This document shows positions 3,797-33,625 of a stretch of DNA of 64,000 bases, in pieces. The notes under the pieces are model-generated. The model was not told the origin of the DNA. It worked only from the letters and a program-made list of their open reading frames with translations, and did not search any database. How positions within the stretch are numbered: position 1 is the stretch's first letter; each line of letters starts with the position of its first letter. This DNA comes from Saprospiraceae bacterium (GTDB lineage: Bacteria > Bacteroidota > Bacteroidia > Chitinophagales > Saprospiraceae): contig JAHBTU010000003.1 in NCBI GenBank assembly GCA_019638455.1, positions 372,001-436,000 of the forward strand. Direction: 5' to 3'. A program made the translations under genes and the position numbers.

Positions 3797-3910
3797 CATA
3801 TCACTAGACATTTTTCACACAACGCCACAACAATGTGAGGTGCAAAGCGGGTAGTGTCAATTCGTTGTGTCGTCGTGGCGTTGTGTGAAATAAAAATGTC
3901 CAGCAGTATG
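3797..3910. mobile_element. 114-bp MITE with 9-bp target duplication, copy 1
   Basis: Terminal inverted repeats CATATCACTAGACATTTTT and (reverse complement of the right end) CATACTGCTGGACATTTTT enclose an internal palindrome built on CACACAACGCCAC. The element is flanked by identical 9-bp direct repeats TAATTTTAG at 3788-3796 and 3911-3919. It encodes nothing. Copy 2 is at 33414 with the same length. The ends match none of the complete ISs in this window, so the mobilising transposase must lie elsewhere. Confidence 0.9.
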
Positions 3911-15098: not shown

Positions 15099-15137
15099 TT
15101 GAATGACCCCAATGACCCCAATGACGGCAATAACGAA

Positions 15138-16559
15138 ATGACGACAACGAGGAACATCAAAAACTGGCTCTCCCAGCCCATCAGCATCGCTCCTTTGATT
15201 ACGCTGCGCGTGGTCATAGGAGCGCTCCTCGTGTTCAGCACGGCGCGTTTTTGGGCGCTGGGTTGGATTGACGACCACTACATCCGCCCGATGTTTCATT
15301 TCAAATACTTCGGATTCGAGTGGGTGGAGCCGCTGTCGGCGATGGGGATGTATGTTGTTCACGCGCTTTTGCTCATCAGTTCCCTGTGCGTCATGTTGGG
15401 GTTGTTTTATCGGTTGGCGGCAGTAGTGCAATTTCTGCTTTTTACCTACACGGAACTGATTGATTTGACTTACTACCTCAACCATTATTACTTCGTTAGC
15501 ATCGTTTGCGGTTTGCTCATTTTTGTCCCCGCCAATCGCGCCTATTCGCTCGACGTGCTGCGCAAACCCGCTATTTTTCAAAAACAAATCCCGCGCTGGA
15601 CAATTTTTATTTTTCAACTCCAACTCGGCATTGTCTATTTCTACGCAGGTTTGTGGAAAATAAATCACGACTGGCTCGTGAATGCCCTTCCCCTAAAAAT
15701 TTGGGTGCCCGCAAACGACCAACTCCCGCTCATCGGCTGGCTCTTTCAGCAAAAAATCACGCCTTATTTGTTCAGTTGGGCGGGAATGCTCTACGATGTG
15801 ACGATTGTGTTCTGGCTCTCTTGGTCGCGCACTCGCCCTTGGGCTTACCTCACGGTCATCGCGTTTCATACCCTGACGGGTTTGATGTTCCAAATCGGCG
15901 TTTTCCCGCTCGTGATGCTCGGCGCGACGCTGATTTTTTTCTCGGAAAAATGGCATACTAGGTTGTGGGACGGGTTGTCGCGTTTTTTTGTCACCCGCTC
16001 CACGAGAGAGAAGTCAAGCGCGACTTCCCATGTAGAGCGGATGACAAACGTAGCGTATGCTAAAGGCCCTCAACCCCTCAGCCCCTCCACCTCTCCACCC
16101 AAACTCATCACCTATCGCTCATCGCTCCTCATTCTCTTTTTCGCTTTCCAAATCCTCTTCCCCTGGCGCTACTTGCTCTACCCCGGCAATGTCTTTTGGA
16201 CGGAGGAAGGCTATCGTTTTTCGTGGCGCGTGATGCTGATGGAAAAGGCTGGCACCGTCACATTTTTTGTGAAAGATGCCAAAACGGGACGCGAAGGCGA
16301 AGTGGTGAACAGCGAATTTTTGAACCCGCACCAAGAAAAACAAATGGCGATGCAGCCCGACATGATTCTGCAATTCGCCCATTTTTTAAAAAAACACTAC
16401 GAACGGCGCGGCGTTAGTGACCCCGCCGTGCGAGCGGAAGTCTATGTGACGCTGAATGCCCGCCCCAGCCGACTCCTCATTGCTCCAAACATTGACTTGA
16501 CAAAACTCCGCGACGGTTGGTCGCATAAAACATGGCTCACTCAAAGTATGCCGGAATGA
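15138..16559 (+). CDS. HTTM domain membrane protein (gamma-carboxylase-like)
   Basis: About 473 residues with at least seven hydrophobic helices in the first 280 and a soluble C-terminal domain. It resembles the HTTM domain of vitamin K-dependent gamma-carboxylases (segments LSQPISIAPLITLRVVIGAL and HYYFVSIVCGLLIF). Bacterial HTTM proteins are inner-membrane proteins of mostly unknown function that recur next to imelysins and TonB receptors. Two earlier ATGs at 15099 sit in a short tandem (AATGACCCC repeated); 15138 fits the start of the domain better. Its last codons (SMPE) and stop come from an inverted-repeat element that overlaps the next gene. Confidence 0.82.
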   Translation: MTTTRNIKNWLSQPISIAPLITLRVVIGALLVFSTARFWALGWIDDHYIRPMFHFKYFGFEWVEPLSAMGMYVVHALLLISSLCVMLGLFYRLAAVVQFLLFTYTELIDLTYYLNHYYFVSIVCGLLIFVPANRAYSLDVLRKPAIFQKQIPRWTIFIFQLQLGIVYFYAGLWKINHDWLVNALPLKIWVPANDQLPLIGWLFQQKITPYLFSWAGMLYDVTIVFWLSWSRTRPWAYLTVIAFHTLTGLMFQIGVFPLVMLGATLIFFSEKWHTRLWDGLSRFFVTRSTREKSSATSHVERMTNVAYAKGPQPLSPSTSPPKLITYRSSLLILFFAFQILFPWRYLLYPGNVFWTEEGYRFSWRVMLMEKAGTVTFFVKDAKTGREGEVVNSEFLNPHQEKQMAMQPDMILQFAHFLKKHYERRGVSDPAVRAEVYVTLNARPSRLLIAPNIDLTKLRDGWSHKTWLTQSMPE

Positions 16560-16649
16560 TATTCCGGCCAATCTCACGAACACGTTTACGAAACCTCGAA
16601 GGTTTCGTAAACGTCACGCTTATACTGGCCGGATTATCATTCCGGCTTA
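16551..16649. repeat. Nested inverted-repeat element at the HTTM/TonB-receptor junction
   Basis: Outer arms GCCGGAATGATATTCCGGCC and (reverse complement) GCCGGAATGATAATCCGGCC enclose a central hairpin GTTTACGAAACC / GGTTTCGTAAAC. About 99 bp in total. It supplies the HTTM stop codon, the overlapping ATGA start and most of the signal region of the receptor. Typical of a small mobile palindrome. Confidence 0.8.
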
Positions 16650-18805
16650 CAGTTGCGTCACAAACCGACACCACCCAGTCTGCCCAACTCCGCGAAATCA
16701 CCGTCACCGCTGGGCAAGCACAGGGCTTGGCGGCGACACACATGCTTGGCGTGGAAAATTTCGGCATTTACAAAGGCAAAAAAACGGAGGTCGTATCGCT
16801 GGCTCAAATCACGGCCAACACGGCCACCAACAACCCGCGCCAGATATATGGCCGCGTGACGGGGCTGAACATCTGGGAAAGCGACGGCGCGGGGCTGCAA
16901 CTCGGCATCGGGGGGCGCGGCCTCAGCCCCAACCGAACGGCCAATTTCAACACTCGCCAGAATGGATACGACATCAGCGCCGATGCCTTGGGCTACCCGG
17001 AGAGCTACTACACCCCACCCGCAGAGGCGCTCGACCGAATCGAAATCGTGCGCGGCGCGGCATCGCTGCAATACGGCACACAGTTCGGCGGCCTCCTGAA
17101 CTTTCGCTTCAAACGCGGCCCCGAAGACAGAAAAATCGCCCTCACTACCCGCCAAACGGTCGGCGCATGGGGCTTTTTCGGCTCCTTCAACAGCATCGGC
17201 GGCACCGTGCTGAACGACAAACTCAACTACTACGCCTATTTTCAATACAAACGCGGCGACGGCTGGCGACCCAATAGCGGCTTCGACTACCGCTGCGGCT
17301 ACGCATCTGCCGATTACCGCGCTTCGGACAAATTGTCGCTCCGCCTCGACCTGACGCGCATGGACTATCTGGCGCAGCAGCCGGGTGGCCTTACCGACAA
17401 GATGTTCCAAGACGATGCACGCCAATCGGTGCGCGAACGCAACTGGTTTTCGGTGGAGTGGAACATGGCTGCACTCTCCTTGAATTACAATTTTTCCGAA
17501 AAAACACGCCTCAACGTGCGCAATTTCGGCCTGCTGGCGCAACGGCAGTCGCTCGGCAACTTGGAGCGCATCAACGTCGCCGACTTTGGCCAAAACCGTA
17601 CGCTGATTGACGGCCAGTTCAAAAACATGGGGCAGGAGACCCGACTGCTGCACCAATATAAAATAGATGGCTTGCCCCAAACGCTGCTTTTTGGATACCG
17701 GCTCTATTCGGGTTTTTCGACCGCCAGACAGGGCGACGGCAGCGCGGGTAGCGACGCGGATTTCAGATTTATCAATCCTGAAAATTTGGAAAACTCCGCC
17801 TACGATTTCCCCAATCAGAACCAAGCGGTCTTCCTCGAAAACGTCTTCAACCTGTCCTCCCAATGGAGCCTCACGCCGGGGCTGCGCTACGAGCGCATCG
17901 TCACCCGCGCCGAGGGCTACTTCACGCAACGGGTGTTGGACGCGGCAGGCAACGTGATTGTGCAAAACAAGATTGACGACAACCGCGAGCGCTTGCGCGA
18001 TTTTCTAATCGGCGGGTTGGGCGCTACCTTCAAGCCACGCGAGACCGTCGAGATGTATGCCAACATCTCGCAGAACTACCGCGCCATCAATTTCACCGAT
18101 TTGCGCATCGTGAACCCCAACTTCGTGGTGGACAGCAACCTGCGCGACGAGCGCGGATTCACGGCGGATTTGGGCATTCGCGGCAGCAAATCGAATATCT
18201 TCACCTACGAGGTAACGGCTTTTTACATCGCTTACAATGGCAAAATCGGTCAAGTGCTTAGGGCCGACCAGCCGCCGCTCTACAACGACTATCGTTTCCG
18301 CAGCAACATTTCCGACGCTCGCAACATTGGCCTCGAAGCCTTCGGCGAGGTGGATTTGTTGCGTTTCTTTTCTTTGAAAAAAAACCAAACACGGCTCACG
18401 ATTTTTGTCAACGCCGCGGTGGTGGATGCCCGTTATGTGAACACCGACGACAGCGCCGTGCGGGGCAAAAAAGTGGAGATGGCGCCCCCCCTGATGTTGC
18501 GCACCGGGATTTCGTTCCAAAGCGGCGCTTGGCGCGGCGCGTTTCAATTCGCCCATATTGGCGAGCATTTTTCCGACGCGACCAACGCCGCGCGCACGGC
18601 TACGGCGGTGGAAGGGCTGATTCCGGCGTACAGTGTGGCCGACCTTTCCGTTTCCTACGCTTGGCGCTGGCTGACGCTGGAAGCGAGTTGCAACAACTTG
18701 CTGGATGCCCGTTATTTCACTCGCCGGGCGGAGAGCTATCCCGGCCCGGGCATCATCCCGTCGGACGGGCGAGGAGTGTATGTGACGGTGGGGGGGCGGT
18801 TTTGA
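16556..18805 (+). CDS. TonB-dependent outer-membrane receptor (FecA-like)
   Basis: About 749 residues (757 if started at 16532). The plug domain is around residues 40-170 (REITVTAGQ, GVENFGIY, RIEIVRGAASLQYGTQFGG), then a 22-strand type barrel ending in an aromatic residue (YVTVGGRF), as expected for an outer-membrane protein. It imports a TonB-energised substrate, probably an iron chelate given the imelysin neighbour; the substrate is not proven. The start overlaps the HTTM stop (ATGA). The N-terminal ~25 codons are derived from the inverted-repeat element, so the present signal peptide (FVNVTLILAGLSFRLTVASQ) appears rebuilt. Confidence 0.9.
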   Translation: MIFRPISRTRLRNLEGFVNVTLILAGLSFRLTVASQTDTTQSAQLREITVTAGQAQGLAATHMLGVENFGIYKGKKTEVVSLAQITANTATNNPRQIYGRVTGLNIWESDGAGLQLGIGGRGLSPNRTANFNTRQNGYDISADALGYPESYYTPPAEALDRIEIVRGAASLQYGTQFGGLLNFRFKRGPEDRKIALTTRQTVGAWGFFGSFNSIGGTVLNDKLNYYAYFQYKRGDGWRPNSGFDYRCGYASADYRASDKLSLRLDLTRMDYLAQQPGGLTDKMFQDDARQSVRERNWFSVEWNMAALSLNYNFSEKTRLNVRNFGLLAQRQSLGNLERINVADFGQNRTLIDGQFKNMGQETRLLHQYKIDGLPQTLLFGYRLYSGFSTARQGDGSAGSDADFRFINPENLENSAYDFPNQNQAVFLENVFNLSSQWSLTPGLRYERIVTRAEGYFTQRVLDAAGNVIVQNKIDDNRERLRDFLIGGLGATFKPRETVEMYANISQNYRAINFTDLRIVNPNFVVDSNLRDERGFTADLGIRGSKSNIFTYEVTAFYIAYNGKIGQVLRADQPPLYNDYRFRSNISDARNIGLEAFGEVDLLRFFSLKKNQTRLTIFVNAAVVDARYVNTDDSAVRGKKVEMAPPLMLRTGISFQSGAWRGAFQFAHIGEHFSDATNAARTATAVEGLIPAYSVADLSVSYAWRWLTLEASCNNLLDARYFTRRAESYPGPGIIPSDGRGVYVTVGGRF

Positions 18806-29859: not shown

Positions 29860-29998
29860 GTCGCCGAGGCCGTCTCACAAGTGGTATTTGTTGACAGGAT
29901 TGACAAAATTTACAGGATTAGCGCCTTTATTCTTCGAAGAAACCTGCAAATCGTGTCAATCGTGTCGAAATTTGAACTTGTGAGACGGCCTCGGCGAC
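29860..29998. repeat. 139-bp inverted-repeat element
   Basis: Arms GTCGCCGAGGCCGTCTCACA (29860) and its exact reverse complement ending at 29998 extend over about 24 bp. A truncated relative (GAGGCTGTCTCGCAAGTTTAAATTTCGACAGGATT) lies at about 46893, cut by IS1 copy 3. It is noncoding and MITE-like, between the hydrolase and the DUF1080 gene. Confidence 0.75.
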
Positions 29999-33337: not shown

Positions 33338-33625
33338 AACGTCGAAAGGGTTTCAGCCATTCTCGGTTTGTAGGAGGTGTTATCTTTTGAGGAACGAAAA
33401 AGGTGACATCTCGCATACTACTAGACATTTTTCACACAACGCCACAACGATGTGAAGTGCAAAGCGGGTAGAGTCAGTTCGTTGTGTCGTCGTGGTGTTG
33501 TGTGAAATAAAAATGTCCAGCAATATGGACATCTCGGCCTGTTTTTGACACGTCATCCCTCCATTCTTCCGGGACGACACCTCAGAACCCGACAATACGA
33601 GAATTGCTGAAACCCTTTCGACGTT
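33338..33625. repeat. Palindromic repeat after yidC, carrying a nested MITE
   Basis: An outer 19-bp perfect inverted repeat (AACGTCGAAAGGGTTTCAG at 33338; its complement at 33607-33625) brackets a copy of the ATTCTCG palindrome family (33355-33608; other copies at 41423, 48935 and 54958). Inside that copy sits the 114-bp MITE at 33414. The stretch 33318-33629 has no gene. It may also serve as the yidC terminator. Confidence 0.7.
33414..33527. mobile_element. 114-bp MITE with 9-bp target duplication, copy 2
   Basis: Same length and structure as the element at 3797. Ends CATACTACTAGACATTTTT and, in reverse complement, CATATTGCTGGACATTTTT. Flanked by the exact 9-bp repeat GACATCTCG (33405-33413 and 33528-33536); removing it and one duplication restores the host palindrome. 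Confidence 0.92.

What the first reader, a model, noticed from the sequence alone, without database searches (positions are those of the whole stretch)
16551..16649. Inverted-repeat element rebuilt the start and signal region of a TonB receptor
Seen: a nested palindrome (GCCGGAATGATATTCCGGCC arms, inner GTTTACGAAACC hairpin) contributes the stop of the HTTM gene, an ATGA overlap, and most of the first 30 codons of the receptor. The new N-terminus still has Arg residues then a hydrophobic stretch. This may be an exon-like capture of a signal sequence by a mobile palindrome, or a hairpin controlling translation of the receptor.
Basis: partly seen in the sequence, partly recalled or inferred. Interest (0 to 1): 0.55.

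Follow-up and report, generated by a model that had tools for sequence, protein, structure and literature searches.

The report
Nested palindromes form receptor signal peptide
Two kinds of small repeat-DNA hairpin, one nested inside the other, have ended up inside the beginning of an outer-membrane receptor gene, where they now appear to spell most of its export signal; a sister species carries the same piece in five tandem copies, which shows repeat DNA being turned into protein while the rest of the gene stays conserved.

Summary
The nested palindrome is real and consists of two unrelated repeat families of a Saprospiraceae genus. The outer arms (16546-16568, 16628-16650) are an inverted pair of REP-like hairpins (E1); the core (16582-16614) is a 33-bp palindrome (E2). 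E1-type hairpins cluster beside RAYT (Y1) transposase genes at 8 of 23 genus RAYT loci, though not beside this genome's own RAYT.

The receptor's start codon (ATG 16532) was not rebuilt: it lies upstream of the repeat, and 10 of 16 orthologues have it there. The repeat supplies the HTTM stop codon and encodes the n- and h-regions of the predicted signal peptide.

The sister species (97% identical receptor) has five in-frame 78-bp copies, while the mature receptor is under purifying selection (dN/dS 0.10). Most other orthologues lack E1/E2. E2 also sits in frame in CarB, MurE, a glycosyltransferase and two more signal peptides; E1 in an LhgO-like oxidase whose sister-species site is empty.

Best reading: selfish hairpin repeats tolerated in frame at permissive protein sites. 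The hairpin is absent from repeat-free orthologues, so a conserved regulatory role is unlikely. Coding palindromes, and a repeat-made signal peptide, are known elsewhere (Rickettsia, Yersinia).

The parts
15099..16559 (+). HTTM / vitamin-K-dependent gamma-carboxylase-like gene; longest ORF opens at TTG 15099, an in-frame ATG lies at 15138; last codons MPE* come from the repeat
   Evidence: ORF; Pfam HTTM 4.1e-78 and VKGC_lumenal_dom 2.3e-56 (searched from 15135)
16532..18805 (+). TonB-dependent receptor, 757 aa; ATG 16532 (alternative in-frame ATG 16556)
   Evidence: ORF; Pfam TonB_dep_Rec_b-barrel 3.9e-34, Plug 5.4e-9; start kept in 10 of 16 orthologues
16546..16568 (+). E1 REP-like hairpin, left copy: GTAT tag + GCCGGAATGATATTCCGGC
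16628..16650 (-). E1 REP-like hairpin, right copy, inverted (GTAA + GCCGGAATGATAATCCGGC on the minus strand), 78 bp from the left copy
16582..16614 (.). E2: perfect 33-bp palindrome (15-bp arms, 3-nt loop), encodes RLRNLEGFVNV in the receptor frame
   Evidence: in 17 of 42 genus genomes
16556..16559 (+). ATGA: HTTM stop (TGA 16557-16559) overlapping an in-frame Met codon of the receptor; both lie in the left E1 copy
16532..16660 (+). predicted signal peptide (43 aa; n-region net +4, h-region about FVNVTLILAGL at 16604-16636, VAS|Q)
   Evidence: rule-based computation; not SignalP
16005..16110 (+). variable linker of the HTTM protein, a second site in the same operon that carries E2 or an E2-like sequence in G007 and G021 but not here
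   Evidence: alignment; E2 in the G007 HTTM frame, (L056)

Best explanation
The feature is an inverted pair of REP-like hairpins (E1, of the kind that RAYT Y1 transposases are associated with) surrounding a separate 33-bp palindromic repeat (E2). The repeats lie in frame between the conserved start codon and the mature part of a TonB receptor. DNA hairpin repeats spread through this genus as selfish sequences. Where they land in frame at positions that tolerate almost any sequence (protein loops, linkers, signal peptides) they are kept and translated. Here two properties of the E2/E1 reading frame make it serviceable: it has no stop codon, and it reads RTRLRN...(basic) then FVNVTLILAGL (hydrophobic). 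It therefore took the place of the n- and h-region of the signal peptide while the native c-region was kept. Because REP-to-REP spacing is 78 bp = 26 codons, slippage or recombination between the hairpins adds whole in-frame units; this gives 1 unit here and 5 in the sister species. SHOWN: copies, nesting, open frames, the 78-bp array, an empty site for an E1 pair in the sister species, purifying selection on the mature receptor. INFERRED: that the product is exported with this signal, that insertion of E1 was by a RAYT, and that the array grew by recombination or slippage.
For: E1: 21 + 13 strand hits with at most 1 mismatch in G000, 12 of 42 genus genomes; 13 distinct inverted doublets in G000 counted by me. 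RAYT link: 8 of 23 genus RAYT loci carry at least 2 E1-type hairpins against 3 of 105 other genus loci (two of those 3 are receptor loci of this operon). In G009 one 23-mer REP is identical in the RAYT array and in the receptor signal region. E2: 11 strict copies in G000, 51 in G007, 17 of 42 genomes. In-frame insertion: LhgO-like E1 pair in G000 only, gap in all 6 orthologues aligned including sister G007; CarB E2 in G000 and G033, other inserts in 4, none in 7 of 13; MurE E2 clear in 3 of 14; glycosyltransferase E2 in 3 of 9. Signal peptides built on E2 in two further genes: a Por-secreted propeller (G000, G007) and a CusB/HlyD-like lipoprotein (G020, G064). Array: five 78-bp units in G007, all open. 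Mature receptor G000/G007 dN/dS 0.10. Computed signal features like those of orthologues.
Against: The RAYT of this genome (L207/L316) is flanked by a different hairpin family (CGCCAACT stems), not E1, and none of the 23 RAYT loci carries E2, so the mover of E2 is unknown and E1 here is an orphan. E2 in G021 at the same receptor position without E1 suggests the nest was not inserted as one unit. No target-site duplication was established; the LhgO-like alignment is ambiguous at its edges. Translation from 16532 or 16556 and cleavage are untested; a start downstream of the repeat is unlikely because the next in-frame ATG (Met71) lies in the mature part and would leave no signal, but GTG/TTG starts were not excluded. 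12 of 16 orthologues show no E1/E2 there (by eye; for E1), so the arrangement is not needed for function.
Confidence: 0.82

Rival explanations
1. The hairpin is a regulatory element: folded in the operon mRNA it controls translation of the receptor or stabilises or processes the transcript between HTTM and receptor.
For: Very stable predicted RNA hairpin, z = -9.35, at the gene junction with an ATGA overlap; published work proposes such roles for REPs at ORF 5' ends (PMC3733652, section 15).
Against: Of 12 orthologous starts only the 4 with repeats fold strongly (z -8.9, -7.2, -4.8, -4.2); the 8 others have z -0.9 to +1.3. The first ATG at 16532 lies before the 51-nt-arm inverted repeat (16546-16650). 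In G007 the first REP has lost part of its pairing, and its E2 units are imperfect in 3 of 5.
Confidence: 0.12
2. A mobile signal-sequence cassette: E2/E1 are selected as donors of secretion signals, so their spread to gene starts is adaptive.
For: Three different exported proteins have E2 as n-region (receptor, propeller, CusB-like lipoprotein), and both open E2 frames are rich in Arg/Lys.
Against: Of 149 distinct E2 copies only 5, from 3 gene families, are signal-like by the filter used (a sixth listed row, L232, was judged spurious and dropped). Others sit in cytoplasmic enzymes (CarB, MurE) or between genes. 34 of 50 G007 copies are cores of a larger palindrome that has spread in many near-identical copies.
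Confidence: 0.1
3. The N-terminal repeat ORF is not translated; the real receptor starts downstream and the repeat is just intergenic.
For: Published caution that many REPs at annotated N-termini are probably extragenic (PMC3733652).
Against: The receptor would lose its signal sequence: the mature part begins QTDT just after the repeat, and the next in-frame ATG is Met71, inside the mature part. The upstream ATG is kept in 10 of 16 orthologues, and all five G007 units stay open.
Confidence: 0.06

Closest known systems
RAYT-associated REPs / REPINs (Bertels and Rainey 2011, PMC3116915; Di Nocera 2013, PMC3733652)
   Same: E1 is a short palindrome in tens of copies, often an inverted doublet with a spacer, with arrays next to RAYT genes in the genus; REPs inside genes and REPs supplying stop codons are described there; insertion of REPINs into existing REPINs and tandem REP arrays are described.
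   Different: Tag is mostly GTAC (also GTAT, GTAA, few GTAG), not GTAG or CGTC; the host lacks an E1-linked RAYT; the spacer here holds an unrelated palindrome and the whole is coding.
Rickettsia palindromic elements (Ogata et al. 2000; read only as described in PMC2229807 and PMC3733652)
   Same: Palindromic repeats inserted in frame in conserved protein genes as well as between genes.
   Different: RPEs are given as 105-146 bp; E2 is 33 bp and, as far as searched, confined to one Saprospiraceae genus.
Yersinia RU-2/YPAL MITE in YPO1552 (Delihas, review PMC2229807)
   Same: A repeat element that partly forms a signal peptide: the direct precedent.
   Different: There it makes a new small exported protein; here it stands in for the signal of a conserved receptor whose orthologues have ordinary signals.
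PARCELs (PMC2996958, abstract)
   Same: Palindromic DNA encoding 25-residue tandem repeats in membrane-targeted proteins; the unit here is 26 residues.
   Different: No sequence relation tested; PARCELs are repeat domains, not a duplicated signal region.

Membership tests
RAYT-linked REP / REPIN (for E1) | short palindrome, many copies per genome | tested here: met
   21 + 13 strand hits in G000
RAYT-linked REP / REPIN (for E1) | inverted doublets with spacer | tested here: met
   13 distinct doublets in G000 counted, including the finding
RAYT-linked REP / REPIN (for E1) | cognate RAYT flanked by the same REPs | tested here: inconclusive
   met in the genus (8 of 23 RAYT loci); not met in G000, whose RAYT has other hairpins; sister G007 has no match to the queried RAYT
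GTAG-tagged REP superfamily (for E1) | GTAG at one end | tested here: not met
   mostly GTAC; at this locus GTAT and GTAA
Rickettsia palindromic elements (for E2) | in-frame insertion into conserved genes | tested here: met
   CarB, MurE, glycosyltransferase with insert-free orthologues
Rickettsia palindromic elements (for E2) | 105-146 bp element of Rickettsia | tested here: not met
   33-bp palindrome in a Saprospiraceae genus
MITE | terminal inverted repeats | tested here: met
   whole feature is an inverted repeat
MITE | target-site duplication | tested here: inconclusive
   LhgO-like filled/empty pair aligns ambiguously at its edges
MITE | related transposase with matching ends | not tested
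   no transposase sought for E2 or for the larger E2-cored palindromes

The most novel reading that the evidence does not exclude
The REP-E2-REP unit is a 26-codon in-frame minisatellite that duplicates a signal-peptide-like module (basic patch plus hydrophobic stretch). Copy-number change (1 in this species, 5 in the sister) would act as a heritable rheostat on export of a TonB receptor; the genus would use nested selfish palindromes as raw material for secretion signals.
Probability: 0.1. Interest if true: 0.75.

Novelty: new variant of a known kind. Interest (0 to 1): 0.45.

Why it matters
It gives a clear, staged case of repeat DNA becoming protein: a palindrome present at one site in three species, a second repeat family around it in two of them, then fivefold in-frame amplification in one, all while the mature receptor stays under purifying selection. 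It offers natural filled/empty pairs (CarB, MurE, glycosyltransferase, LhgO-like) for testing what palindromic inserts cost a protein, in a family for which my paper searches found no such report.

Tried and rejected
Rejected: one single mobile element. E2 occurs without E1 and in other palindromes. Rejected: distribution in Acidobacteriota. The contigs titled Thermoanaerobaculia MAG.385 (JAKLJF01) correspond to G062, which the genome search places in the window's own genus (L095 found in L154). Rejected: a general preference of E2 for hairpin loops as an established rule. 34 of 50 G007, 3 of 11 G000 and 16 of 86 other copies have complementary flanks (score at least 15; control 0.7%), but the G007 ones are near-identical copies of one composite and not independent. 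Rejected: the G000 RAYT as E1's partner. Led nowhere: E1/E2 beside the first Y1 genes fetched; literature on Saprospiraceae palindromic repeats (3 papers listed, none of whose titles or listed abstract beginnings concerns such repeats; not opened); RPE plus signal peptide (0). Not done: SignalP, target-site analysis of E2, genome-wide gene-based enrichment test, other strains of the species. The low-complexity repeats in the G034, G027, G005 and G022 signal regions were seen by eye only.

Full report
WHAT IS THERE. The window lies in contig C3 of a 5.77-Mb genome (G000). At 16546-16650 there is an inverted repeat with 51-nt arms, 80% complementary, around a 3-nt loop. It is far beyond chance: RNA fold z = -9.35, and about 0.01 expected matches for either core motif in the window. 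It sits at the junction of an HTTM/VKGC-lumenal-domain gene and a TonB-dependent receptor (Pfam), downstream of an imelysin (M75) and a DUF4856 gene. That neighbourhood suggests an iron-uptake operon; this is inference.

TWO REPEAT FAMILIES, NESTED. The outer arms are E1, GCCGGAA-nnn-TTCCGGC-type hairpins with a GTA(C) tag. In G000 there are 21 + 13 strand hits with at most one mismatch, and 13 distinct inverted doublets by my count. The core is E2, a 33-bp palindrome with 11 strict copies in G000, 19 places with up to 3 mismatches, 51 strict in sister G007, and presence in 17 of 42 genus genomes. In public contigs, 83 stretches match a stricter pattern. Their titles are Saprospiraceae, Chitinophagales and like MAGs plus one titled Thermoanaerobaculia, which matches G062 of the same genus. 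Unrelated outer palindromes also enclose E2: a family beginning TATACCTCGCGCCG (most G007 copies) and one beginning ATGCGAATCAAGGGTTG.

E1 AND RAYT. A search with the G020 RAYT found 23 loci in 17 of 42 genomes. Eight of the 23 carry two or more E1-type hairpins, against 3 of 105 other genus loci, in the best cases as an array just after the gene. The G009 array contains a 23-mer identical to one in the G009 receptor's signal region. The RAYTs of G009 and G030 that carry these arrays look damaged or truncated (one TAA inside; 176-aa frame). The RAYT of G000 instead has 13 hairpins with CGCCAACT stems, so E1 in G000 is an orphan at present. E2 is at 0 of 23 RAYT loci; its mover is unknown.

THE START WAS NOT REBUILT. 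Of 17 orthologues printed, one (L064) begins inside the gene. In 10 of the other 16 the receptor ATG lies in the HTTM codons for KTW, as here (16532). The repeat lies after it. What the repeat adds is the HTTM stop (TGA 16557-16559, giving MPE*), a second in-frame ATG, and the codons up to the native c-region (V-A-S|Q-T-D-T). The next in-frame ATG after the repeat is Met71, inside the mature part.

THE SIGNAL PEPTIDE. By simple rules the G000 N-terminus has net charge +4, a hydrophobic window of KD 2.21 (the other 11 sequences computed: 1.83-2.84), and VAS before Q. Basic residues and part of the hydrophobic window come from E2, the rest from the linker and right E1. No SignalP was available.

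ORTHOLOGUES. G007 (97% identity) has five 78-bp units, each 26 codons, all open; the same 78-bp spacing separates the two REPs in G000. G021 (82%) has E2 plus a different palindrome. G009 has three E1 copies. The remaining 12 of 16 show neither catalogued family (by eye; for E1); some have other low-complexity repeats (by eye). A strong start-region hairpin exists only in those four among 12 tested. The mature receptor of G000 and G007 differs by 68 of 2150 bases with 50 synonymous and 18 nonsynonymous changes, dN/dS 0.10, so the gene is maintained while its N-terminus changes.

SAME BEHAVIOUR ELSEWHERE. Alignments of proteins with repeats: CarB, one loop, E2 in G000 and G033, other inserts in G007, G019, G020 and G021, none in 7 of 13. 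MurE: E2 clear in G000, G007 and G021 of 14; the loop also varies in length in others, and G009 has a short stretch (SKPMRF) that might be a remnant. Glycosyltransferase: E2 in G000 and G007, two copies in G021, none in the 6 others. LhgO-like oxidase: an E1 pair (18 aa) in G000, gap in all 6 orthologues including the sister. Among 149 distinct E2 copies, 6 rows were signal-like, of which I dropped one (L232) as spurious. The 5 kept are a Por-secreted propeller (G000, G007), the G007 receptor, and a CusB/HlyD-like lipoprotein (G020, G064). The G000 receptor fell outside that filter and is counted with the G007 receptor as one gene family. The HTTM linker in this operon is another variable site, with E2 or an E2-like sequence in G007 and G021. 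The names CarB, MurE and LhgO-like rest on a PDB match (CarB), Pfam Mur ligase and DAO domains and recall for the finer name.

READING. The evidence fits selfish hairpin repeats that persist in coding sequence where the protein tolerates them. A signal peptide needs little more than charge and hydrophobicity, and one frame of E2/E1 supplies both. Array growth in whole 78-bp units keeps frame. Adaptive use is possible but not shown.

AGAINST WHAT IS KNOWN. In-gene REPs, REPs giving stop codons and N-terminal REPs are described (PMC3733652, passages and section 15). REPINs, insertion of REPINs into others and tandem REP arrays are in PMC3116915 (passages). Rickettsia palindromic elements and a Yersinia repeat that partly forms a signal peptide are reviewed in PMC2229807 (passages). 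PARCELs are in PMC2996958 (abstract). PMC3767692 was read in passages only. Searches showed no report of such elements in Saprospiraceae. Hence: new variant of a known kind.

Noticed in passing
L207:4250-5300 (G000 C2, about 1125750-1126800): The genome's RAYT-like gene is embedded in arrays of a different hairpin, GTAACGCCAACTTTCAGTTGGCG (13 stems).
   Followed up: partly
L206:3646-5800 (G000 C1): An IS200-like Y1 transposase lies between arrays of a repeat read as ...PTDIAPRWGWCVWGGFALP...
   Followed up: no
G007, e.g. L211-L239: Apparent recent burst of a near-identical composite palindrome (TATACCTCGCGCCGCCAAGTTTTCAGCAT ... E2 ... CGAGGTATA) in the sister species; only two related copies seen in G000 (L042, L046).
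   Followed up: partly
window 3813-3890 and 33430-33507: Two copies of another inverted repeat (TTTCACACAACGCCACAAC arms).
   Followed up: no
window 29860-29998: Perfect 23-nt inverted repeat with a GAGGCCGTCTCACAAGT core; a related sequence lies near an E1 copy in L023.
   Followed up: no
L044:1053-2534: Glycosyltransferase with E2 also carries an in-frame (NPQTLKPS)n tandem repeat.
   Followed up: no
JAKLJF01 contigs (L109 and others): Record titles say Thermoanaerobaculia but the genome (G062) is placed in this Saprospiraceae genus; probable mislabel.
   Followed up: partly
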